Of a stretch of DNA of 64,000 nucleotides, positions 11,691-62,160 are shown piece by piece. Below the pieces are notes generated by a model. It worked only from the letters and a program-made list of their open reading frames with translations, ran no database searches and was not told the origin of the DNA. The DNA is taken from NCBI RefSeq assembly GCF_002831585.1, contig NZ_CP025113.1, forward strand, positions 186,001 to 250,000. Reading direction: 5' to 3'. The stretch comes from Bradyrhizobium sp. SK17 (GTDB lineage: Bacteria; Pseudomonadota; Alphaproteobacteria; Rhizobiales; Xanthobacteraceae). The translations under genes were made by a program, and so were the position numbers. How positions within the stretch are numbered: position 1 is the stretch's first letter; every line of letters begins with the position of its first letter.

Positions 11691-14600
11691 TTACTCCGGC
11701 CCGATCAGGGCGACCACATCCCCCGCACGCAAGGTCTGGCCCGGCTTCACCGGCACCGATGCGATGCGGCCGGCCACCGGCGCGAGCACCGAGATTTCCA
11801 TCTTTATGGACTCGATGATCGCAAGCACGTCGCCGGCCGCGACCTTGGCGCCCTCCTCGGCCAGGACCTTCCAGATGTTGCCCGGCACTTCGGAGAAGGC
11901 GCCGATCTGGCCGTCTGGAATTCCTGTCGTGGCAACGCCCGCATCAATCGTCTCCGCCGGCGTCTCGTCGAGCTTCATCTCGCGCCAGCGCTGGCGCTCG
12001 GCATCGAATGCGGCTTGCTGCGTTGCCTTGAACGCGGCGATCGACGGCTGCGCCGCGGTCAATGTCTTCGCATAGTCGGCGTAGGAGAACTCGCCCTGCT
12101 CGATCCTGATGTCGCACTGCCCGTGCGGGAATGCGGCGCGGGCGTCGAGCAGTTCGTCGGCGTCGACCGGGAAGAAGCGGATCTTGTCGAAGAACCGCAG
12201 CAGCCAGGGATGGCCGGGCTCGAACACTTTCGTCGTGCGCCAGCTATTCCAGACCTGGATGGTGCGGCCGAACAGTTGGTAGCCGCCCGGCCCTTCCATG
12301 CCGTAGATGCACAAATAGGCGCCGCCGATGCCGACCGCGTTCTCCGGGGTCCAGGTCCGCGCCGGATTGTACTTCGTGGTCACCAGGCGATGCCGCGGAT
12401 CGAGCGGGGTCGCCACCGGCGCGCCGAGATAGACGTCGCCGAGGCCGAGCACGAAATAATCGGCGTCGAACACGATGCGGCGGACATCGTCCTCGCTGCC
12501 GAGCCCGTTGATACGCCGGATGAACTCGACATTCGACGGGCACCACGGCGCATCCGCGCGCACCAGTTCCTGGTATTTGCGCATCGCGAGCTCCGCCTCT
12601 GGGTCGCGCCACGACAGCGGCAGGTGCACGGTGCGGCTCGGCACCCGCATCGCATCGACGTCAGGCAGTTCGCGTTCGATCCGCCCGAGGACGTCGAGCA
12701 GCTTTGCGCGCGACAGCGCCGTGCCGTCATAATGGATCTGCAACGAACGGATGCCGGGCGTCAGGTCGATCAGGCCGCCGAGCTTCGCGTCCTCCAGCGC
12801 CTGCGCCAGCACATGGACGCGCAGCCGCAACGCGATATCGAGCTCCATCGGGCCATATTCGACCAGGAGATTGTCGTCGCCGGCGCGGCGATACACCACC
12901 GGAATCGGGCCGTCTTCATTGCGCCCGACGATGGCCGAACCGAGTTCAGGCGCCTTCAGCACCGTGGGACCCGCAGCCGGATCATCGCGTTTCACCGGCA
13001 CGAAGCGCACGGTGTCACCCGGCCTGAGCTGGCCGACTTTCCAGAGCTCGTCACGCGCGACCACCGCAGGGCAGACGAAGCCGCCGAGGCTCGGCCCATC
13101 GGGGCCGAGGATGATCGGCATGTCGCCGGTGAAGTCGATCGAGCCAACCGCATAGGCGTTGTCGTGGATGTTGGACGGATGCAGCCCGGCCTCGCCGCCG
13201 TCGGCACGCGCCCAGCCGGGCTTCGGACCGATCAGCCGCACGCCGGTGCGGGCGCTGTTGAAGTGCACCTCGTAATCCGACGCAAACAGCGTTTCGATGT
13301 CCTCGTCGAGGAAGAAGTCCGGCGCGCCGTGCGGACCGTAGACCACGCCGATCTGCCACGCCGATGTGAGCTGCGGCTGTTCGTCCTCCGTGGCGTGCCG
13401 CGGCGTTGCCAGGCCGGATGATTGCGCGCCGATATGCAGCACATCCCCGGCCTTCAGCGAGCCCGTCGCATGACCGCCGAACGCGCCGAGTGCGAACACG
13501 GCGCGCGAGCCGAGAATTTCCGGCACGTCGAAGCCGCCGCGGACGGCGAGATAGCTGCGCTGCCCTGGCCCCTTGATGCTGCCGATCGTGAGCGTCTGGC
13601 CGGCACGCACCGCGACCGGCTCGTTGTACGCAACCTCGATACCGTCGAGTGACGCCTTCATCTGCGCACCCGAGAGAGCGACGATCGCGTCGGTGTTGAA
13701 GCGCAAGGTCGGCCCGTTGACCGTCAGCTCCAGCGCGGTCGTCGTCTCCGGGTTGCCGACCATGCGGTTGGCAAGCCGGAACGACCGCTCGTCCATCGGG
13801 CCGCTCGGCGGCACGCCGACATGCCAGAGATGCAGCCGGCCGGGCAATTCCTGTACGCCGCTTTGCGCACCGGGTGCGACGACATCGATGGTGCGCGGGC
13901 GATAGGCGAATTCGCCGAGCACACTGGTCGCGACCTGCCCGCTGCGGAACACGTCGGATGCGGCGATGGCGCGCAGATAATCGAGATTGGTCTCGATGCC
14001 GGCCACGACCGTGTCATCGAGCGCCTGCGACAACCGCGCGATGGCAGCCTCGCGCGTCTCGGCCGACACGATGATCTTGGCCAGCATCGGATCGTAGAAC
14101 GGCGTCACCTCGGTGCCGGTCTCGATCCAGCCGTCGATTCGCGCATCCGGCGAAAACCTCACCTGCGTCAGCCGGCCCGCGCTCGGACGGAAGCCCGCGC
14201 CCGGATTCTCGGCATAGAGCCGCACCTCGATCGCCGCGCCCTTGGGCGCAAGCGCGCCCGCGGCACCCAAAACGTCCTCACCGGCGGCTTGCCGGATCAT
14301 CCATTCGACGAGATCGACGCCGGTGACCTGCTCGGTGATGGGGTGCTCGACCTGCAAGCGCGTATTCACCTCGAGGAAGTAGAAATCCGCGCGTGCGACG
14401 TCGTAGATGAACTCGACCGTGCCAGCGGATTCGTAGGCGACCGCCTTGCCGAGTGCCACCGCGGCCGCATGGAGACGCCCGCGGGTCTCGGCAGAAAGCC
14501 CCGGCGCGGGCGTCTCCTCGAAGACCTTCTGGTTGCGCCGTTGCAGCGAGCAGTCGCGCTCTCCGAGCGCGACGACGTCGCCCTTGCCGTTGCCGAAGAT

Positions 14601-15233
14601 CTGCACCTCGATGTGGCGGGCGCGGGCGACGAACCGCTCCAGATAGACCCGCGCATCACCGAAACTGGCGCGCGCCGTGCGTTGCACTGAGGCAAAGCGC
14701 TCGCGCAGCGTCGCCATGTCGTGGCAGAGCTGCATGCCGATGCCGCCGCCGCCCGCCGTGCTCTTCAGCATCACCGGAAAGCCGATCCGCTCGGCCTCGC
14801 GCACCGCCTCGTCGATGGTCTCCAGCAGGCCGGAGCCCGGCAGCAGCGGCACGCCGCTGCGCTCGGCGAGCTCGCGTGCCCTGTGCTTGAGGCCGAAGGC
14901 GTCGAGATGCTCCGGCCGCGGCCCGATGAAGGCGATGCCGTGTTCGGCGAGCCGCTCAGCGAAACGGCGATTCTCCGACAGGAAGCCGTAGCCGGGATGC
15001 ACCGCCTGCGCGCCGGTCGCAAGGCATGCCGCCATGATCGCATCGACGTTGAGATAGCTCTCGGCCGCCGGCGCCGGACCGATCCGCACCGCCTCGTCGG
15101 CCGCGAGCACCGGCCGGGTGAAGCGGTCGGCGTCGGAGTAGATCGCGACCGAAGCGATGCCCATACGGCGCAATGTTTCGCCGATCCGCCCGGCGATCTC
15201 GCCGCGGTTGGCAATCAAGACCTTGCTGAACAT
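11691..15233 (-). CDS. Urea carboxylase-family enzyme, probably guanidine carboxylase
   Basis: This 1180-residue biotin-dependent carboxylase starts with a biotin carboxylase half (about 1-450: ANRGEIAGRI, GGGGIGMQ, EVNTRLQVEHP). It continues with the two carboxyltransferase modules of urea carboxylase (related to KipA/KipI and allophanate hydrolase subunits, about 470-760 and 790-1040) and ends with a biotinyl domain holding the target Lys in ESIKME. Enzymes of this family ATP-dependently carboxylate urea to allophanate or, where they lie under a guanidine-I riboswitch beside DUF1989 genes, carboxylate guanidine. The context here (riboswitch at 19549-19667, two DUF1989 genes) favours guanidine. 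It is the last operon gene, 3 bp after the preceding stop. Confidence 0.85.
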   Translation of the reverse strand: MFSKVLIANRGEIAGRIGETLRRMGIASVAIYSDADRFTRPVLAADEAVRIGPAPAAESYLNVDAIMAACLATGAQAVHPGYGFLSENRRFAERLAEHGIAFIGPRPEHLDAFGLKHRARELAERSGVPLLPGSGLLETIDEAVREAERIGFPVMLKSTAGGGGIGMQLCHDMATLRERFASVQRTARASFGDARVYLERFVARARHIEVQIFGNGKGDVVALGERDCSLQRRNQKVFEETPAPGLSAETRGRLHAAAVALGKAVAYESAGTVEFIYDVARADFYFLEVNTRLQVEHPITEQVTGVDLVEWMIRQAAGEDVLGAAGALAPKGAAIEVRLYAENPGAGFRPSAGRLTQVRFSPDARIDGWIETGTEVTPFYDPMLAKIIVSAETREAAIARLSQALDDTVVAGIETNLDYLRAIAASDVFRSGQVATSVLGEFAYRPRTIDVVAPGAQSGVQELPGRLHLWHVGVPPSGPMDERSFRLANRMVGNPETTTALELTVNGPTLRFNTDAIVALSGAQMKASLDGIEVAYNEPVAVRAGQTLTIGSIKGPGQRSYLAVRGGFDVPEILGSRAVFALGAFGGHATGSLKAGDVLHIGAQSSGLATPRHATEDEQPQLTSAWQIGVVYGPHGAPDFFLDEDIETLFASDYEVHFNSARTGVRLIGPKPGWARADGGEAGLHPSNIHDNAYAVGSIDFTGDMPIILGPDGPSLGGFVCPAVVARDELWKVGQLRPGDTVRFVPVKRDDPAAGPTVLKAPELGSAIVGRNEDGPIPVVYRRAGDDNLLVEYGPMELDIALRLRVHVLAQALEDAKLGGLIDLTPGIRSLQIHYDGTALSRAKLLDVLGRIERELPDVDAMRVPSRTVHLPLSWRDPEAELAMRKYQELVRADAPWCPSNVEFIRRINGLGSEDDVRRIVFDADYFVLGLGDVYLGAPVATPLDPRHRLVTTKYNPARTWTPENAVGIGGAYLCIYGMEGPGGYQLFGRTIQVWNSWRTTKVFEPGHPWLLRFFDKIRFFPVDADELLDARAAFPHGQCDIRIEQGEFSYADYAKTLTAAQPSIAAFKATQQAAFDAERQRWREMKLDETPAETIDAGVATTGIPDGQIGAFSEVPGNIWKVLAEEGAKVAAGDVLAIIESIKMEISVLAPVAGRIASVPVKPGQTLRAGDVVALIGPE

Positions 15234-15236
15234 GCC

Positions 15237-15875
15237 TCACGCCTCCGGCTCGAAGATCGTGACCTGCACCGGCGTCGGGAAGAAACCGTTGCAGGGATTG
15301 TTGATCTGCGGGCAGTTCGAGATCAGGCACAGCACGTCCATCTCGGCCACCAGCTCGATGGCGTCGCCAGGCCTCGAGACGCCGTCGACCACGGTGAAAT
15401 TGCCGGCGGTGTCGATCGGCACGTTCATGAAGAAGTTGAGGTTGGGCACGATGTCGCGCTTCGACAGGCCATATTTCGCGGCCTCGATCACGAAATTCTC
15501 GCGGCAGGCGTGCTGGTAGCGGGTCTGGTGCCCGAACCGCACGGTGTTGCTCTCGCAGGAGCAGGCACCCGCCGAGGTGTCGTGCAGGCCGCAACTGTCG
15601 GCGGTGACGCGCAGCATCACGCGGCCCTCATTGGACATGATATTCGTGCCGAGCCCGACATAGGCCGAGCCCTGCGCGCGCAGCGTGTCCTGGCCGCTGT
15701 AGCGCTCGCCGAGATCACTGGCGCAATAGAACAGCGTGTCGACGGCCTGCTGGCCATGCGTGTCGGTGATCCGCAGCGTCTGTCCTTTGCGGACGATCGC
15801 CGACCATGGCTTGCGCGCGGGGATTTCGACATCGAGGACGATGCGGGCGCCGGCCCGAGCTGCCTGCGCGTTCAT
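15237..15875 (-). CDS. DUF1989 urea carboxylase-associated protein 2; probable carboxyguanidine deiminase subunit
   Basis: This 212-residue cytoplasmic protein of the DUF1989 (UAAP) family has conserved Cys-rich stretches DSCGLHDTSAGACSCESN and NCPQINNPCNGFFPTPV. In riboswitch-linked operons the two DUF1989 proteins form a heteromeric carboxyguanidine deiminase, converting carboxyguanidine to allophanate plus ammonia. This is established for the family and inferred here. The ATG overlaps the stop of the preceding DUF1989 gene (ATGA) and the carboxylase begins 3 bp after its stop, consistent with a tightly coupled enzyme module. Confidence 0.82.
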   Translation of the reverse strand: MNAQAARAGARIVLDVEIPARKPWSAIVRKGQTLRITDTHGQQAVDTLFYCASDLGERYSGQDTLRAQGSAYVGLGTNIMSNEGRVMLRVTADSCGLHDTSAGACSCESNTVRFGHQTRYQHACRENFVIEAAKYGLSKRDIVPNLNFFMNVPIDTAGNFTVVDGVSRPGDAIELVAEMDVLCLISNCPQINNPCNGFFPTPVQVTIFEPEA

Positions 15876-16717
15876 TGCACCGCTCCTTCGCTAGTCTCGC
15901 CGAAATACAGCGCGTTGTTCTCGAAGGCGCGAATTGCTTCCGCGGTCGCGGTCCGGCACAGATCGTCGGCCGCGGGCCTGGCCGCGTGATAGCGCACGAT
16001 CTCGACGCTGCCCTGCGGATAGCGCTCTGCGGGATCGAGCGGATGCGGGCAGTTCGACAGCGCGATCAACAGGTCCATCTCGGCGCGCAGATCGACGAAG
16101 TCGTCCTTGGCGCGGCGCGGCGCCGACCAGACAAACTTTCCATCCGCGTCGATGGCGACCGGCGCAAAGAAGCTGACACAGGGATGGACGTCGCGGCGGT
16201 CGAGCCCGAGCTTGTTTGCCGCGAGAATGAAGTTGTCGCGGGTGTTGCGGAAATTGCCGTCACCGTATTTCACCTGGTTGGTCGCGGCCGTCGAGCCACC
16301 CACCACCGCGTCATGCGCCGCGCTGGTGTCCTCGGTGATGCCGAGCAGCGCGCGGCCCATGTCGGACAGCAGCACGCGGCCCTTCTGCAGCCGCGCCGCC
16401 CATTGCACCTTGATGGTGTCGGCGTGGTTCAGCCGTTCAGTGGTATCGGCCGCATTCCAGGCGAGCAGGCTGACGGTCGACGCCCCCGATGTGTTGACGA
16501 TGCGCAGCGTATCGCCGCGATTGAGCCGCGTGGTCCAGTACCAGCCGGCTGGAATCACCTCGCGATGGATGATCGCATCAGCGGCGATCGGTGCGGCGTC
16601 GCGCGCCGTCGGTGCCGGCAGCGCGCGCGGCGCATGCTCCTGGCCTGCGGCCTTCAGTTCGTTGTAGCGCCGGGTGTGCGCCGCGACCTCGGCCTTCTGT
16701 TCCTCTGTGAGGATCAT
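15872..16717 (-). CDS. DUF1989 urea carboxylase-associated protein 1; probable carboxyguanidine deiminase subunit
   Basis: This 281-residue paralogue of the next gene has an N-terminal helical extension (MILTEEQKAEVAAHTRRYNE) before the DUF1989 core (about 50-275: STVSLLAWNAADTTERLNHAD, ALSNCPHPLDPAERYPQG). It lacks part of the Cys cluster of its partner (it has AEDTSAAHD-like ITEDTSAAHD instead of DSCGLHDTSAGACSC), suggesting division of labour between a catalytic and a structural subunit. It starts at the ATGA overlap with the ATPase stop. Its role is inferred from the operon and from characterised guanidine-degrading operons. Confidence 0.8.
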   Translation of the reverse strand: MILTEEQKAEVAAHTRRYNELKAAGQEHAPRALPAPTARDAAPIAADAIIHREVIPAGWYWTTRLNRGDTLRIVNTSGASTVSLLAWNAADTTERLNHADTIKVQWAARLQKGRVLLSDMGRALLGITEDTSAAHDAVVGGSTAATNQVKYGDGNFRNTRDNFILAANKLGLDRRDVHPCVSFFAPVAIDADGKFVWSAPRRAKDDFVDLRAEMDLLIALSNCPHPLDPAERYPQGSVEIVRYHAARPAADDLCRTATAEAIRAFENNALYFGETSEGAVQ

Positions 16718-17547
16718 GGTTGCTCCTTCAAGACGAGAGCGCCGGGCCGTCCCGGCTGATGCTCCTTGCCTGACCGGGTCGTCCCGATCGGAGCCGGTTG
16801 AATGGTCCCGCGCGGCTCGGCGCTCCGGCGCGGGAATATCTCGAGATCGCGCGACACCGTGGCGCCGTAGCGCTCGCGCTCCTCGGGCCGGTTGCGCGAC
16901 CGCTCCAGCGCGATCACCCGCGTCGCGAGCCCGAACGCCTCGCTGAGATCGTGCGTGACCATTACGACAGTGAGGTTCGTCTCGTTCCACAGCCGCTTCA
17001 TCAGCACATGGATGTCGGCGCGGATGCCCGGATCGAGCGCGCCGAACGGCTCGTCGAGCAGCAGGATTTTCGGCCCGCGCATGATCGCCTGCGCGAGCGC
17101 AAGGCGCTGCTGCATGCCGCCCGACAGCGCGGACGGATATTTGCCCTCCTGGCCGGCAAGTCCGACCTCGGCGAGCAGCTTCATCGCATCGTCGGCCGCG
17201 GCGCGGCGCGCCGCGCCGAACAGCCGGCCGATCAATTTGGCGTCGCGCAGCTCACGCCCGAGCATGACGTTCTGCAACACCGTGAGATGCGGAAACACCG
17301 AGTAACGTTGAAACACCACGCCGCGGTCGGCGTCCGGCTCGCCGGGCAACGGCTTGCCGTCGACCAAAATCTGCCCGCGGCTCGGCTGCTCCTCGCCGAG
17401 CAGCATTCTGAGCAGCGTGGTCTTGCCGCAGCCGGACGGACCGACCAACGCGATGAACGCGCGCGGCTCGACCTCCATCGTGATGCGCTCCAGCACGATG
17501 TGGTCGCCATATTCCTTCCAGACGTCATCGAACCGGATCGCGCTCAT
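16714..17547 (-). CDS. NitT/TauT-type ABC transporter ATP-binding protein (guanidine/urea operon)
   Basis: The 277-residue ATPase has Walker A GPSGCGKTT, signature LSGGMQQR, Walker B ILLLDEPFGALDP and H-loop VTHDLSEAFGLA. It resembles SsuB/TauB/NrtD-type proteins. A C-terminal tail of about 60 residues (from ERERYGATVSRDLEIFPRR onward) is rich in Pro/Arg/Gly and is of unknown role. The start MSAIRFDDVWKEYGDH overlaps the permease stop by ATGA, and its own stop overlaps the first DUF1989 gene the same way. Together with the permease and binding protein it should import the operon's substrate or a related amidine. Confidence 0.88.
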   Translation of the reverse strand: MSAIRFDDVWKEYGDHIVLERITMEVEPRAFIALVGPSGCGKTTLLRMLLGEEQPSRGQILVDGKPLPGEPDADRGVVFQRYSVFPHLTVLQNVMLGRELRDAKLIGRLFGAARRAAADDAMKLLAEVGLAGQEGKYPSALSGGMQQRLALAQAIMRGPKILLLDEPFGALDPGIRADIHVLMKRLWNETNLTVVMVTHDLSEAFGLATRVIALERSRNRPEERERYGATVSRDLEIFPRRSAEPRGTIQPAPIGTTRSGKEHQPGRPGALVLKEQP

Positions 17548-18362
17548 TCCGCCCTCACCGAGGCAAACCAGGGAAACAGCTTGCGCTGCGTGGCGCGCAG
17601 GCCAACATCGATCAGGAACGCGAGCAGCGTGATCCAGGCGACGTAGGGGATGATGACGTCCATCGCGAGATAGCGGCGCACCAGGAAGATCCGGTAGCCG
17701 AGCCCGGAATCCGAGGCGATCGCCTCGGCCGCGATCAGGAACAGCCACGCCGGGCCGAGTTGCAGCCGCAGCACGTCGATCAGGCGCGGCAGGGTCTGCG
17801 GCATCGCGACCCGCAGCGCGATCTGCCAGGTCGAGGCGCCGAGCGTCTGCGCCTTGACGATCTGCTCGCGCGGCAGCTCCTGCACTTTCATGGCGAGGTC
17901 ACGGACCATGCAGGGCAAGGTCCCGATCACGATCAACGCGATCTTGGAATTCTCCCCTAACCCCATCACGATGAACAGGATCGGCAGCAGCGTCAGCGGC
18001 GGTACCATCGACGTCACCGACACGAACGGCCCGAGCAGGGCATTGGCGCCCGGCAGCAGTCCGATCACGATGCCGAGCACCAGCGCCGCCACCGTCGAGA
18101 TTGCCAGCGCCGATCCCAATCGCCCGAGGCTCGCGACCGTGTCCGACAGCATCAGATAGCTGCCGGTGCGCGGATCGACCTCGAACGCCATCTGCTTGAC
18201 GGCCTGCACCATGCTCGGCAGCGCCGGCAGCAGCTTGTCGTTCGGATTCTGCGCGAGCCGTGCGCTGGAGCCGGCGAAATAGGCGATTGCGACCAACAGG
18301 AACGGCAGCGCGAGAAGATAGAATCGCGTCTGCCGTCCCGGCCGTATGTTCACAAGTCGCAT
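17544..18362 (-). CDS. NitT/TauT-type ABC transporter permease (guanidine/urea operon)
   Basis: The 272-residue inner-membrane permease has about six hydrophobic helices (YLLALPFLLVAIAYFAG; TVAALVLGIVIGLLPGANAL; WLFLIAAEAIASDSGLGYRI). The EAA-type coupling loop is visible around QTLGASTWQIALRVAMPQTLP. ATG at 18362 has AGGAG upstream; more upstream in-frame codons overlap the binding-protein gene in a shadow frame. It follows the binding-protein gene after 46 bp and overlaps the ATPase. The family imports nitrate, taurine, sulfonates and similar small ions; here the riboswitch suggests guanidine or a derivative. Confidence 0.87.
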   Translation of the reverse strand: MRLVNIRPGRQTRFYLLALPFLLVAIAYFAGSSARLAQNPNDKLLPALPSMVQAVKQMAFEVDPRTGSYLMLSDTVASLGRLGSALAISTVAALVLGIVIGLLPGANALLGPFVSVTSMVPPLTLLPILFIVMGLGENSKIALIVIGTLPCMVRDLAMKVQELPREQIVKAQTLGASTWQIALRVAMPQTLPRLIDVLRLQLGPAWLFLIAAEAIASDSGLGYRIFLVRRYLAMDVIIPYVAWITLLAFLIDVGLRATQRKLFPWFASVRAE

Positions 18363-18408
18363 CGTCGGCTCCTGCCTGGAGATCGCGCCGTGGCGTCGGG
18401 GCTTGCGT

Positions 18409-19482
18409 TCAGAGCTTGCCTTTGGCGGCCTCGTCCATGTAGGTCGGATCGAAGCGCAGCTTGACGTTCGCCTTGTCGCCCAGCACCGACTTGTCGGCGA
18501 GCTCGATGCCGACGGCGTCGGCCGATTTCGCGCCCTTGCCGAGCAGGTCCTTCTCGAAAAGGAATTTGCGGACGCGGTCCATCGTCGTGCCAACCGTCTT
18601 GCTGCGCGTGAAGGCCTCGGCGTCGGTTGCCTTGTCGAACAGCTTGGTGGTCGAGAGCTGGCTATCGAAACCGGCGAGATCGGTGCCGGAGGCCTTCGCC
18701 ATTGCCTCCTTGGCGGCCTTCGCTGCCGGATCGTTGGCGGTCATCTTGGCGATCGTCTCGTACCAGATGCCGACCAGCGCCTTGGCAAAATCCGGATTGT
18801 CCTTGGCGACCGCGGTGTTCACCACCATCAGGTCCATGATCTCGCCGGGGATCTGCGAGGAATCGAACACCTTCCTGGCGTCGGGCGAGCCGAGGATTTC
18901 GGTCACGATCGGATTCCAGGTCACCACCGCGCTGACGTCCGCCGTCTTGTAGGCGGCGGCGATATCGGCATCTGACGTGTTGACGACCTTGACGTCCTTC
19001 TCGCTCAGCTTGGAGGTCTCGAGCGCGCGCGCCAGCAGATAATGCGATACCGAGAACTCGACCAGATTGACCGACTGTCCCTTGATGGCAGCGAGGTCGG
19101 CCTTGTTCTTCAGGATCACGGCGTCGTTGCCGTTGGAGAAGTCGCCCATCACGACCGCCGTGGTGTCGACGCCGCCGGCGGCGGGAATCGACAGCGCGTC
19201 CATGTTGGTGATGGTGACGGCGTCGTAACCGCCGGCGGTGTACTGATTGATCGATTCGACGTAGTCGTTGAACTGCTTGACCTCGATCGTGATGCCGTAT
19301 TTGTCGGCCCACTTCTTGACGATGCCGGTGTCGGCCGCGTAGCCCCACGGCATCCACCCGACATAGATCGACCAGGCGACCTTGAAATTCTTCTTCGGTG
19401 CGGCGTCGGCGGCAGGCGCGGCTGCGAGCACGATCGCGCAGCCGATCACAACAGAGCGAAGGAAGAAAACGAATTTGTTCAT
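18409..19482 (-). CDS. NitT/TauT-type ABC transporter substrate-binding protein (guanidine/urea operon)
   Basis: This 357-residue periplasmic receptor is first in the operon. A signal peptide (about 1-31, VVIGCAIVLAAAPAADA) precedes a type-2 periplasmic-binding fold starting FKVAWSIYVGWMPWGYAADTG. Aromatic residues (Tyr, Trp, Trp, Tyr) in that stretch and acidic residues later could form a cation-binding pocket, consistent with guanidinium, but this is inference. ATG at 19482 has AGAGGGA upstream; an upstream in-frame start would extend into the riboswitch terminator. Proteins of this type in urea-carboxylase clusters are often annotated as putative urea binding proteins. Confidence 0.86.
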   Translation of the reverse strand: MNKFVFFLRSVVIGCAIVLAAAPAADAAPKKNFKVAWSIYVGWMPWGYAADTGIVKKWADKYGITIEVKQFNDYVESINQYTAGGYDAVTITNMDALSIPAAGGVDTTAVVMGDFSNGNDAVILKNKADLAAIKGQSVNLVEFSVSHYLLARALETSKLSEKDVKVVNTSDADIAAAYKTADVSAVVTWNPIVTEILGSPDARKVFDSSQIPGEIMDLMVVNTAVAKDNPDFAKALVGIWYETIAKMTANDPAAKAAKEAMAKASGTDLAGFDSQLSTTKLFDKATDAEAFTRSKTVGTTMDRVRKFLFEKDLLGKGAKSADAVGIELADKSVLGDKANVKLRFDPTYMDEAAKGKL

Positions 19483-19506
19483 TGCCGATCCCTCTTGCGA
19501 AACTTC

Positions 19507-19550
19507 ACAAAAAGGGACTGGCGAAAAGACCATCGCTCCGCCAATCCCTT
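19507..19550 (-). terminator. Intrinsic terminator forming the riboswitch expression platform
   Basis: On the minus strand a 12-bp stem (AAGGGATTGGCG with CGCCAGTCCCTT, one G-U pair) is followed at once by a T5 run, between riboswitch and first gene. This is the classic layout of a transcription-attenuating switch. The 5' arm shares bases 19549-19550 with the 3' strand of riboswitch helix P1, and its TTGGC can also compete for P1's GCCAA. Confidence 0.85.
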
Positions 19551-19667
19551 GGCTGACGAGGTCTCCCGGGCTTTTATCCCGCCGTGCACCTGCGGGGATG
19601 TCTCCCCCGCAAGCGGCTGCTCTCGGACCAGCACCTTGCGTGGCAAGGTCGGAACCCTAGCGGCCAA
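19549..19667 (-). ncRNA. Guanidine-I riboswitch (ykkC class)
   Basis: On the minus strand the conserved ykkC/guanidine-I blocks occur in order: CTAGGGTTCCG, then CTGGTCCGAGAG, then ACGGCGGGATAAAAGCCCG with GGGAGACC, joined by variable stems. P1 can form between 19663-19667 and 19549-19553 (TTGGC/GCCAA). This RNA binds guanidinium and switches genes on, commonly guanidine exporters, carboxylases and DUF1989 genes. The intrinsic terminator directly downstream indicates control by relief of termination. Motif matches are essentially complete, so the class assignment is firm; ligand response in this organism is inferred. Confidence 0.95.
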
Positions 19668-19681
19668 CTCGATGCCTGTGA

Positions 19682-19697
19682 TGCACGAGCTGTGCCA
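19682..19697 (-). promoter_or_regulatory. Candidate sigma-54 (RpoN) promoter of the guanidine operon
   Basis: On the minus strand TGGCAC-N5-GTGCA has the invariant GG-N10-GC spacing of a -24/-12 promoter. Transcription would begin near 19671, immediately before the first riboswitch helix. Only the first T of the TTGCA box deviates. I see no clear NtrC box, so the activator is unidentified. Confidence 0.6.
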
Positions 19698-25980: not shown

Positions 25981-26095
25981 GCAATTCTTTCTCGGCGCTG
26001 TGATGCCGATGAAGTCATGAACCAAGAATTCGCAGTTGGCGATGCGGTGCGCTCAAACTGGATTCGCAGTTCACTCGCGGGAATGACGACCCAAG

Positions 26096-26184
26096 AAAAA
26101 AGGGCCGCTTGAATGAACAAGCGGCCCAAGTCTAGGGAGGAAACGCCCAAGGAGGGCAGCGATAGCGCGAGGCGCTACCGCACC
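26096..26184 (-). ncRNA. mmgR: mmgR-like (alpha-r8 / Rfam suhB) trans-acting small RNA
   Basis: On the minus strand a CTTGCG-N17-GCATAT promoter (26219-26191) is followed by an about 89-base transcript. It has a first hairpin (GGTAGCGC/GCGCTATC), a second small stem presenting UCCUU, a single-stranded UUUCCUCCC segment complementary to ribosome-binding sites, and a perfect 10-bp terminator stem (GGGCCGCTTG/CAAGCGGCCC, 26102-26127) followed by T6. Three-hairpin layout, anti-Shine-Dalgarno motif, size and position next to hisN (an SuhB-type inositol monophosphatase gene) fit the rhizobial mmgR/suhB family. Identification is by structure and context, without alignment. Confidence 0.7.
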
Positions 26185-61662: not shown

Positions 61663-61689
61663 CCTGCCTTGCCCAATTTCGCACGTGCC

Positions 61690-61995
61690 TGTGGTCGTGT
61701 GTCAGTCGGTAGGTATCCGGACAAGAGGCCGGACAGCCGCCAAGGGGTGGAAGAACCGAGGGTCGCTTACGTCCATTTGGACAGTCCATCTGGACACGAG
61801 GCGGCCAGCATCTCTCTCCAGAGATGCCTTGTTGAAGGTCTCACCACTCTTTGCAACCGTGACTGGCAGCCGGAGGCGAACCGGCGCACCCCGCTCTCCA
61901 CGGGGGACGCGACTTAAAGCAACGACGGATCGGGCTTTTTTGGTCTCTACCGGCGGTCCAACGCCGGCGCGGGCTACTGAAAAGGCTTGTCCTTC
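61690..61995 (+). ncRNA. speF-type structured leader RNA
   Basis: A long structured region precedes the decarboxylase gene. It has two tandem GTCCATNTGGAC mini-hairpins (61771-61782, 61784-61795), a perfect GCATCTCT/AGAGATGC hairpin (61808-61827), a CCCCG/CGGGG stem near 61890-61910 and a CCGGCG/CGCCGG stem (61950-61967). The Rfam speF motif is a conserved element of unknown mechanism in the 5' UTR of alphaproteobacterial ornithine decarboxylase genes. Position, length and stem density fit; boundaries are approximate and no alignment was made. Confidence 0.7.
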
Positions 61996-62160
61996 ATTGC
62001 CAGGTGAGCGGGCGGGAAACTCTCCCAACCAATCCACGGCAGCACAGTCTGGTTTGAGTCTTTTGGCCTCAACGCGCCTCCATCGCGCGATGTGGCCGGA
62101 GCGCTCTCACCCGACGTCACGTTGATGCGGATCCCGTCGCTGGGGCCGTTGGAGAGTGCC

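What the first reader, a model, noticed from the sequence alone, without database searches (positions are those of the whole stretch)
11691..19697. Guanidine-riboswitch-controlled uptake and degradation operon usually labelled urea carboxylase
A textbook guanidine-I riboswitch plus terminator precedes ABC transporter, two DUF1989 proteins and a urea-carboxylase-like enzyme, all translationally coupled. Established work on such operons assigns the enzymes as guanidine carboxylase and carboxyguanidine deiminase. The linked NitT/TauT-type transporter is then a candidate guanidine importer, which is less well described than the enzymes.
Basis: partly seen in the sequence, partly recalled or inferred. 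Interest (0 to 1): 0.85.

Follow-up and report, generated by a model that had tools for sequence, protein, structure and literature searches.

The report
Guanidine switch hidden inside transporter gene
A bacterial operon for taking up and breaking down guanidine carries two guanidine-sensing RNA switches, and the second one, not noticed at first, lies inside the protein-coding end of the transporter gene, where evolution preserves the RNA shape and not the protein sequence.

Summary
In detail: a Guanidine-I riboswitch (94.2 bits) with a strong predicted terminator precedes an ABC transporter, two DUF1989 proteins and a carboxylase. The carboxylase carries both published guanidine-carboxylase residues (D700, D933), so the guanidine reading is well supported, and this kind of operon is already known.

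In 26 distinct related sequences the aptamer codons show pS 0.011 against 0.297 in the gene body (lowest of 261 windows), while amino-acid change there equals that of the neighbouring tail. All 468 base-pair cells are intact. Of 44 examined alphaproteobacterial loci with Guanidine-II between ATPase and deiminase genes (33 from one family), 35 have the whole aptamer inside the ATPase frame, 7 part of it, 2 none; the frame differs between lineages. So selection keeps the RNA, not the peptide.

Dual Guanidine-I/II operons are published; a translated aptamer inside a full-length structural gene I did not find in print. Translation of the tail, and how translation and switching interact, are inferred. 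Guanidine specificity of enzyme and importer is untested.

The parts
19561..19671 (-). Guanidine-I (ykkC) riboswitch aptamer
   Evidence: RF00442, 94.2 bits vs gathering 63; the only match in the genome; present in 43 of 45 related named loci scanned
19512..19550 (-). predicted intrinsic terminator of the Guanidine-I switch
   Evidence: -24.2 kcal/mol, z -4.57, followed by a U-tract
18409..19482 (-). [quoted passage not shown]
   Evidence: TIGR03427 556.8 bits, cut-off 333.9; PF13379/PF09084
17544..18362 (-). ABC permease
   Evidence: PF00528
16714..17547 (-). ABC ATPase, 277 aa; its last 25 codons hold the Guanidine-II region; stop overlaps the next start (ATGA)
   Evidence: PF00005
16742..16790 (-). 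Guanidine-II (mini-ykkC) riboswitch aptamer, wholly inside the ATPase coding sequence (codons 253-269); ACGA loop in P1, ACGG loop in P2
   Evidence: RF01068 42.9 bits vs gathering 32; pS 0.011 vs 0.297; 0 of 468 pair cells broken
16761..16794 (-). possible outer helix P0 around P1 (GCUCC 16794-16790 with GGAGC 16765-16761)
   Evidence: 98.2% of cells paired in 22 sequences, but no pair with a change on both sides, so no covariation support
16723..16726 (-). Shine-Dalgarno-like GGAG of the first DUF1989 gene, inside the ATPase coding sequence
   Evidence: sequence; codons 270-277 pS 0.041
15872..16717 (-). DUF1989 protein UAAP1, carboxyguanidine deiminase subunit by homology
   Evidence: TIGR03425 290.7 bits, cut-off 205.95
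15237..15875 (-). DUF1989 protein UAAP2, carboxyguanidine deiminase subunit by homology
   Evidence: TIGR03424 322.3 bits, cut-off 284.7
11691..15233 (-). guanidine carboxylase (annotated as urea carboxylase), biotin-dependent
   Evidence: TIGR02712 1822 bits; D700 and D933

Best explanation
This is a guanidine import and degradation operon under two guanidine switches of different class. Step 1 (aptamer and terminator shown by sequence; action inferred from the family): Guanidine-I with its terminator gates transcription of the whole operon. Step 2 (location and selection shown by sequence; control of the enzyme genes inferred from the family): a Guanidine-II aptamer lies wholly inside the 3' coding end of the ATPase gene, just upstream of the Shine-Dalgarno of the deiminase gene, and is kept by selection on the RNA, not on the peptide. 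Step 3 (inferred): ribosomes translating the ATPase melt the aptamer and reach the overlapping ATGA stop/start, giving the enzyme genes a basal coupled translation; between ribosomes the aptamer refolds and, when bound to guanidinium, favours new initiation there. Guanidine would thus set both operon level and the enzyme-to-transporter ratio. The embedded arrangement is the common one among the alphaproteobacterial guanidine operons examined that carry Guanidine-II, and differs from Guanidine-II upstream of the carboxylase gene as described in enterobacteria. The confidence figure is for steps 1 and 2; step 3 alone is about 0.45.
For: Both aptamers exceed Rfam gathering scores. 43 loci with ATPase identity of 90% or more (found through UAAP1, apart from the window's own genome) gave 26 distinct 277-codon sequences: pS 0.0114 in aptamer codons, 0.297 in codons 1-240, 0.299 in the adjacent tail 221-252; lowest of 261 windows of 17 codons; non-synonymous 0.0995, equal to the adjacent tail (0.0988) and above the body (0.039). 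Controls: permease last 25 codons 0.155 vs 0.218 for the rest; UAAP1 last 25 codons 0.265 vs 0.346 for codons 11-256; 0 of 100000 random 17-codon sets as low; 0 of 468 pair cells broken. Second group, 19 sequences: aptamer pS 0.124 vs body 0.352. Census: whole aptamer inside the ATPase frame in 25 of 33 family loci with ATPase upstream, part in 7, none in 1, and in 10 of 11 further class-level loci, in more than one frame. P1 has 3 pairs with changes on both sides.
Against: Translation of the ATPase tail is inferred from the open frame only. In the window's clade the published switching logic (linker carries an anti-Shine-Dalgarno) is not evident: the linker is SD-like and its duplex with the ribosome-binding region is mostly -6.0 kcal/mol, no better than shuffles. 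The SD-hairpin test is inconclusive (median z -1.29; 4 of 43 at p<=0.05). For 'pairs with a change on both sides' 54 of 500 shuffles do as well, and a slide by +3 columns also gives 3 such pairs. Embedding could be passive drift of stop codons through a stop-free GC-rich aptamer. 8 of 18 class-level loci and 9 of 45 named loci have no Guanidine-II over the gathering score.
Confidence: 0.75

Rival explanations
1. The aptamer is functional, but its embedding in the ATPase gene is a neutral by-product of stop-codon drift and compact operons; passage of ribosomes has no regulatory role (a rival to step 3 only).
For: The core GGGACGRCCC has no stop codon in any frame; the ATPase ends before, inside or after the aptamer in different lineages and reads it in several frames; a likely frameshift between relatives (L016 vs L179).
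Against: Full embedding is the majority state (35 of 44). In the frame-(1,1) group the stop ends 17 nt after the aptamer in 19 of 19 loci from five genera, and in 17 of 19 it reads TGAGGAG, overlapping the Shine-Dalgarno. In the window clade 41 of 43 loci have exactly 277 codons.
Confidence: 0.4
2. The conserved stretch reflects selection on the ATPase C-terminal peptide or on the next gene's ribosome-binding site, and the Rfam match is incidental.
For: It is at the end of a gene next to a start codon; codons 270-277 are also constrained; UAAP1's first 10 codons are somewhat constrained too (pS 0.125).
Against: Amino-acid change in the aptamer codons is as high as in the neighbouring tail; two other gene ends of the operon show little constraint; the same RNA is read in different frames giving unrelated peptides; P1 pairs change on both sides.
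Confidence: 0.03
3. The operon is a urea importer/urea carboxylase system as annotated.
For: TIGR02712 and TIGR03427 carry urea names.
Against: Guanidine riboswitches of two classes; Asp at the K. lactis 1330 position in 48 of 48 named relatives in which it could be scored.
Confidence: 0.04

Closest known systems
Guanidine carboxylase operons with Guanidine-I upstream and internal Guanidine-II (Raoultella, Klebsiella, Erwinia: PMC12186494; Vreelandella: PMC12508155; passages seen)
   Same: Same two riboswitch classes, ABC transporter, deiminase and guanidine carboxylase in one operon
   Different: In the review's enterobacteria Guanidine-II stands before carboxylase and allophanate hydrolase. 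In 7 of 7 phylum loci of that type examined, the aptamer starts after the UAAP2 stop (16-218 nt between; other frames not checked). Here it is inside the ATPase coding sequence and precedes UAAP1; allophanate hydrolase is unlinked
B12 riboswitches with uORFs in M. tuberculosis (metE, ppe2; PMC11260477, passages)
   Same: Translated frame interacting with a riboswitch; AUGA termination-reinitiation relay to the next gene
   Different: Short uORFs and OFF switches for B12; here a full-length ABC ATPase gene contains the entire aptamer, and the class is described as an ON switch
E. coli Guanidine-II upstream of sugE (PMC9300104, PMC9094411, passages)
   Same: Same aptamer class, two ACGR hairpins; proposed to raise translation when bound
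   Different: Leader location with a putative anti-SD linker; here a coding location and an SD-like linker

Membership tests
Guanidine-I riboswitch (RF00442) | covariance model match over gathering score | tested here: met
   94.2 vs 63 bits
Guanidine-I riboswitch (RF00442) | terminator expression platform | tested here: met
   predicted hairpin -24.2 kcal/mol, z -4.57, with U-tract
Guanidine-II riboswitch (RF01068) | covariance model match over gathering score, two ACGR hairpins | tested here: met
   42.9 vs 32 bits; ACGA and ACGG loops
Guanidine-II riboswitch (RF01068) | conserved pairing with covariation | tested here: met
   98.2% of cells paired; 3 pairs with two-sided changes, all in P1; covariation score reached by 0 of 500 shuffles, but the count of two-sided pairs is reached by 54 of 500 (22 sequences)
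Guanidine-II riboswitch (RF01068) | linker anti-SD sequestering the ribosome-binding region | tested here: inconclusive
   weak in the window clade, stronger in some relatives; 10 of 44 at p<=0.05
Guanidine-II riboswitch (RF01068) | guanidinium binding | not testable with these tools
   needs in-line probing or ITC
Guanidine carboxylase | Asp at K. lactis 1330 and Asp at 1584 | tested here: met
   D700 and D933; both Asp in 47 named relatives, D700 alone scorable (Asp) in one more
Guanidine carboxylase | activity on guanidine over urea | not testable with these tools
   needs enzyme kinetics
Carboxyguanidine deiminase (CgdA/CgdB) | paired DUF1989 proteins next to the carboxylase | tested here: met
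   TIGR03425 and TIGR03424 over cut-off; the tree-based definition of PMC11410670 was not applied
Guanidine ABC importer | binding and uptake of guanidinium | not testable with these tools
   TIGR03427 plus operon linkage only

The most novel reading that the evidence does not exclude
A translated riboswitch: in alphaproteobacterial guanidine operons an entire Guanidine-II aptamer works from within the coding sequence of a full-length upstream gene, so that ATPase-translating ribosomes and guanidinium jointly set the ratio of degrading enzymes to importer by a combination of stop/start coupling and ligand-gated initiation.
Probability: 0.45. Interest if true: 0.75.

Novelty: new variant of a known kind. 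Interest (0 to 1): 0.58.

Why it matters
Riboswitches are usually described as elements of untranslated leaders. A metabolite aptamer preserved inside a translated structural gene, with its reading frame free to change, widens where riboswitches should be looked for (searches limited to intergenic sequence would miss it) and poses a testable question about how ribosome traffic and ligand sensing interact. It also offers one signal read twice in one operon, probably once for transcription and once for translation.

Tried and rejected
Urea carboxylase reading: rejected on signature residues. Peptide or ribosome-binding-site constraint as cause of the conservation: rejected by non-synonymous rates, frame changes and gene-end controls; in the UAAP1 control one of 26 sequences differs in length, reads a stop in the fixed frame and was left in. 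Expression platform: linker duplexes, SD hairpin (both with plain letter shuffles) and single-strand folds of 16 sequences gave no consistent switch for the window clade; left open. P0 gets no covariation support; the 'hairpin-core' value of 0.0 is circular (codons picked by exact motif) and is not used; its sequences were found through the aptamer model, so that replicate leans towards conserved aptamers; its 8-sequence subset shows a smaller contrast (0.114 vs 0.226). Frame numbers printed come from a motif with optional bases and are not strictly comparable; frame counts are taken only. The regex caught only P2; redone. Importer specificity was not pursued by structure prediction. Literature: searches (20 of 27 papers listed; 20 of 72; 15 of 468; 12 of 14) showed no report of an aptamer inside a full-length upstream gene; I saw listings, and passages of PMC11260477, PMC2864571, PMC3766115 and PMC10907184. 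Most subscription papers are not held, e.g. 10.1111/mmi.14702, a recalled paper on guanidine use.
Full report
The window is part of an 8.29-Mb genome whose closest named relatives for this operon are Bradyrhizobium species. Guanidine-I is at 19671-19561 on the minus strand at 94.2 bits, the only match in the genome, followed by a predicted terminator hairpin of -24.2 kcal/mol, z -4.57. Behind it lie a TIGR03427 binding protein, a permease, an ATPase, the DUF1989 proteins UAAP1 and UAAP2, and a carboxylase. The carboxylase has Asp at the position of K. lactis Asn1330 (D700) and the Asp1584 equivalent (D933), the criteria that PMC11410670 (passages) uses for guanidine carboxylase; both are Asp in 47 named relatives and D700 in one more where the second could not be scored. 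Allophanate hydrolase is encoded about 1.9 Mb away (805 bits).

Rfam finds Guanidine-II at 16790-16742, 42.9 bits. The ATPase frame runs through the whole of it and stops at ATGA, the start of UAAP1. Of 52 named loci found through UAAP1, 45 were scanned with Rfam: 43 have Guanidine-I and 36 have Guanidine-II. Of these 36, 32 have an ATPase match upstream: the aptamer is wholly inside its frame in 20, partly in 10, outside in 2.

Is the aptamer kept as RNA or as protein? I took 43 loci with ATPase identity of at least 90%; they came from UAAP1 searches, apart from the window's own genome. 41 have 277 codons (the 2 with 278 were dropped) and 26 of these are distinct. Synonymous difference per site is 0.0114 in the 17 aptamer codons, 0.297 in codons 1-240 and 0.299 in the adjacent codons 221-252; the aptamer window is the lowest of 261, and the 25-codon window from aptamer to gene end the second lowest of 253. 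Non-synonymous difference is 0.0995 in the aptamer, 0.0988 in the adjacent tail and 0.039 in the body, so the peptide is not constrained more than its neighbourhood. As controls, the last 25 codons of the permease (which also overlaps the next start) give 0.155 against 0.218 for the rest, and those of UAAP1 0.265 against 0.346; none of 100000 random 17-codon sets from codons 1-252 is as low; all 468 pair cells of P0, P1 and P2 are standard pairs, with variation at two P1 pairs only. In 22 more diverse sequences 98.2% of cells pair and three P1 pairs show changes on both sides; the covariation score is reached by none of 500 shuffles, the number of two-sided pairs by 54 of 500, and a slide by +3 columns also gives three such pairs.

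How general is it? The family-level search for RF01068 listed 118 hits (my count) in 90 of 198 genomes. I examined 92 of them, two of these (L002, L184) below the gathering score: 53 precede an SMR (sugE/gdx-like) gene, 34 precede UAAP1, 5 were not identified. Of the 34, the aptamer is fully inside the ATPase frame in 25, partly in 7, outside in 1, and 1 has no ATPase upstream. The hairpins are read in different frames: (1,1) in 19 loci, (1) in 7, and (2,0), (0,2), (2), (1,2), (0,0) in six others; L016 and L179 share the preceding peptide and then differ by a frame. In the (1,1) group the stop ends 17 nt after the aptamer in 19 of 19 and reads TGAGGAG in 17 of 19. A class-level search with UAAP1 (E up to 1e-40) found 19 of 385 genomes, own included; 10 of the 18 new loci have Guanidine-II over gathering and 8 do not; 9 of the 10 have the ATPase upstream and all 9 contain the aptamer in its frame. 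A phylum-level RF01068 search hit 84 of 398 genomes; of the 29 best-scoring new loci examined, 19 precede SMR genes, 7 precede the carboxylase with the aptamer beginning 16-218 nt after the UAAP2 stop (7 of 7; other frames in that gap were not checked), and 3 precede UAAP1 (1 fully inside the ATPase, 1 outside, 1 without ATPase and from the same genome as a class-level locus). In all, of 44 examined loci with ATPase, 35 are full, 7 partial, 2 outside; 33 of the 44 are from the window's own family.

A replicate in the (1,1) group (19 distinct sequences) gives aptamer pS 0.124 against 0.352, with non-synonymous 0.332 against 0.131; a subset of 8 close sequences gives 0.114 against 0.226. These sequences were found through the aptamer model, so this is weaker evidence than the window clade.

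How the switch works is not settled. The published model has a putative anti-SD in the linker (PMC9300104, PMC9094411, passages). Linkers of some relatives pair well with the SD (L015, L016: -16.3 and -14.9 kcal/mol) or, in a Rhodopseudomonas/Afipia-like group, with the start-codon region (mostly -9.0 to -11.0; L091 -7.0), but in the window clade the best duplex is mostly -6.0 and not better than shuffles; 10 of 44 reach p<=0.05. A hairpin over the SD after P2 is common but mostly not significant (median z -1.29, 4 of 43). The proposed combination of ATGA coupling and ligand-gated initiation is inference. The nearest experimental precedent I found is the B12 switches with uORFs in M. tuberculosis, where an AUGA relay was shown (PMC11260477, passages).

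Already known: dual Guanidine-I/II operons in enterobacteria (PMC12186494, passages) and in Vreelandella (PMC12508155, passages). The review draws guanidine import by ABC transporters as given, while PMC12508155 says that no study had addressed guanidine importers; a search of the held library for importer papers from 2023 on with four terms found none. I found no description of an aptamer wholly inside a full-length upstream gene in searches of an open-licence library, of which I saw the listings and passages of a few papers.

Noticed in passing
L002, 1501-1550 (G000:C1:4818501-4818550, - strand): A sub-threshold Guanidine-II match (31.3 bits) directly upstream of a SugE/Gdx-type SMR exporter gene (NF008512 145.9 bits, cut-off 126), so the same genome may both export and degrade guanidine.
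   Followed up: partly
window 16767-16760 and 16728-16721: In the window the linker of Guanidine-II repeats the Shine-Dalgarno sequence (AAGGAGCA twice), and two GCUC copies could pair with either.
   Followed up: partly
L083 and similar Rhodopseudomonas/Afipia-like loci: The linker contains ATGA: the ATPase stop overlaps an ATG inside the riboswitch, and in some loci (e.g. L005, L007) that ATG is in frame with UAAP1.
   Followed up: no
L030 and L032: Divergent loci in which the ATPase frame covers the aptamer and runs 39 nt past it, with possible overlap of the UAAP1 frame.
   Followed up: no
G000:C1:4878990-4879616: A further DUF1989 paralogue elsewhere in the genome (27% identical to UAAP1).
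   Followed up: no
L194, L197, L199: Two ACGR-type motifs upstream of UAAP1 by pattern but no Guanidine-II match over gathering: possible degenerate or variant aptamers.
   Followed up: no
window 61671-62108 (+): ar45 sRNA and speF leader matches side by side.
   Followed up: no
window 26088-26164 (-): mmgR (suhB family) sRNA match, 74.2 bits.
   Followed up: no
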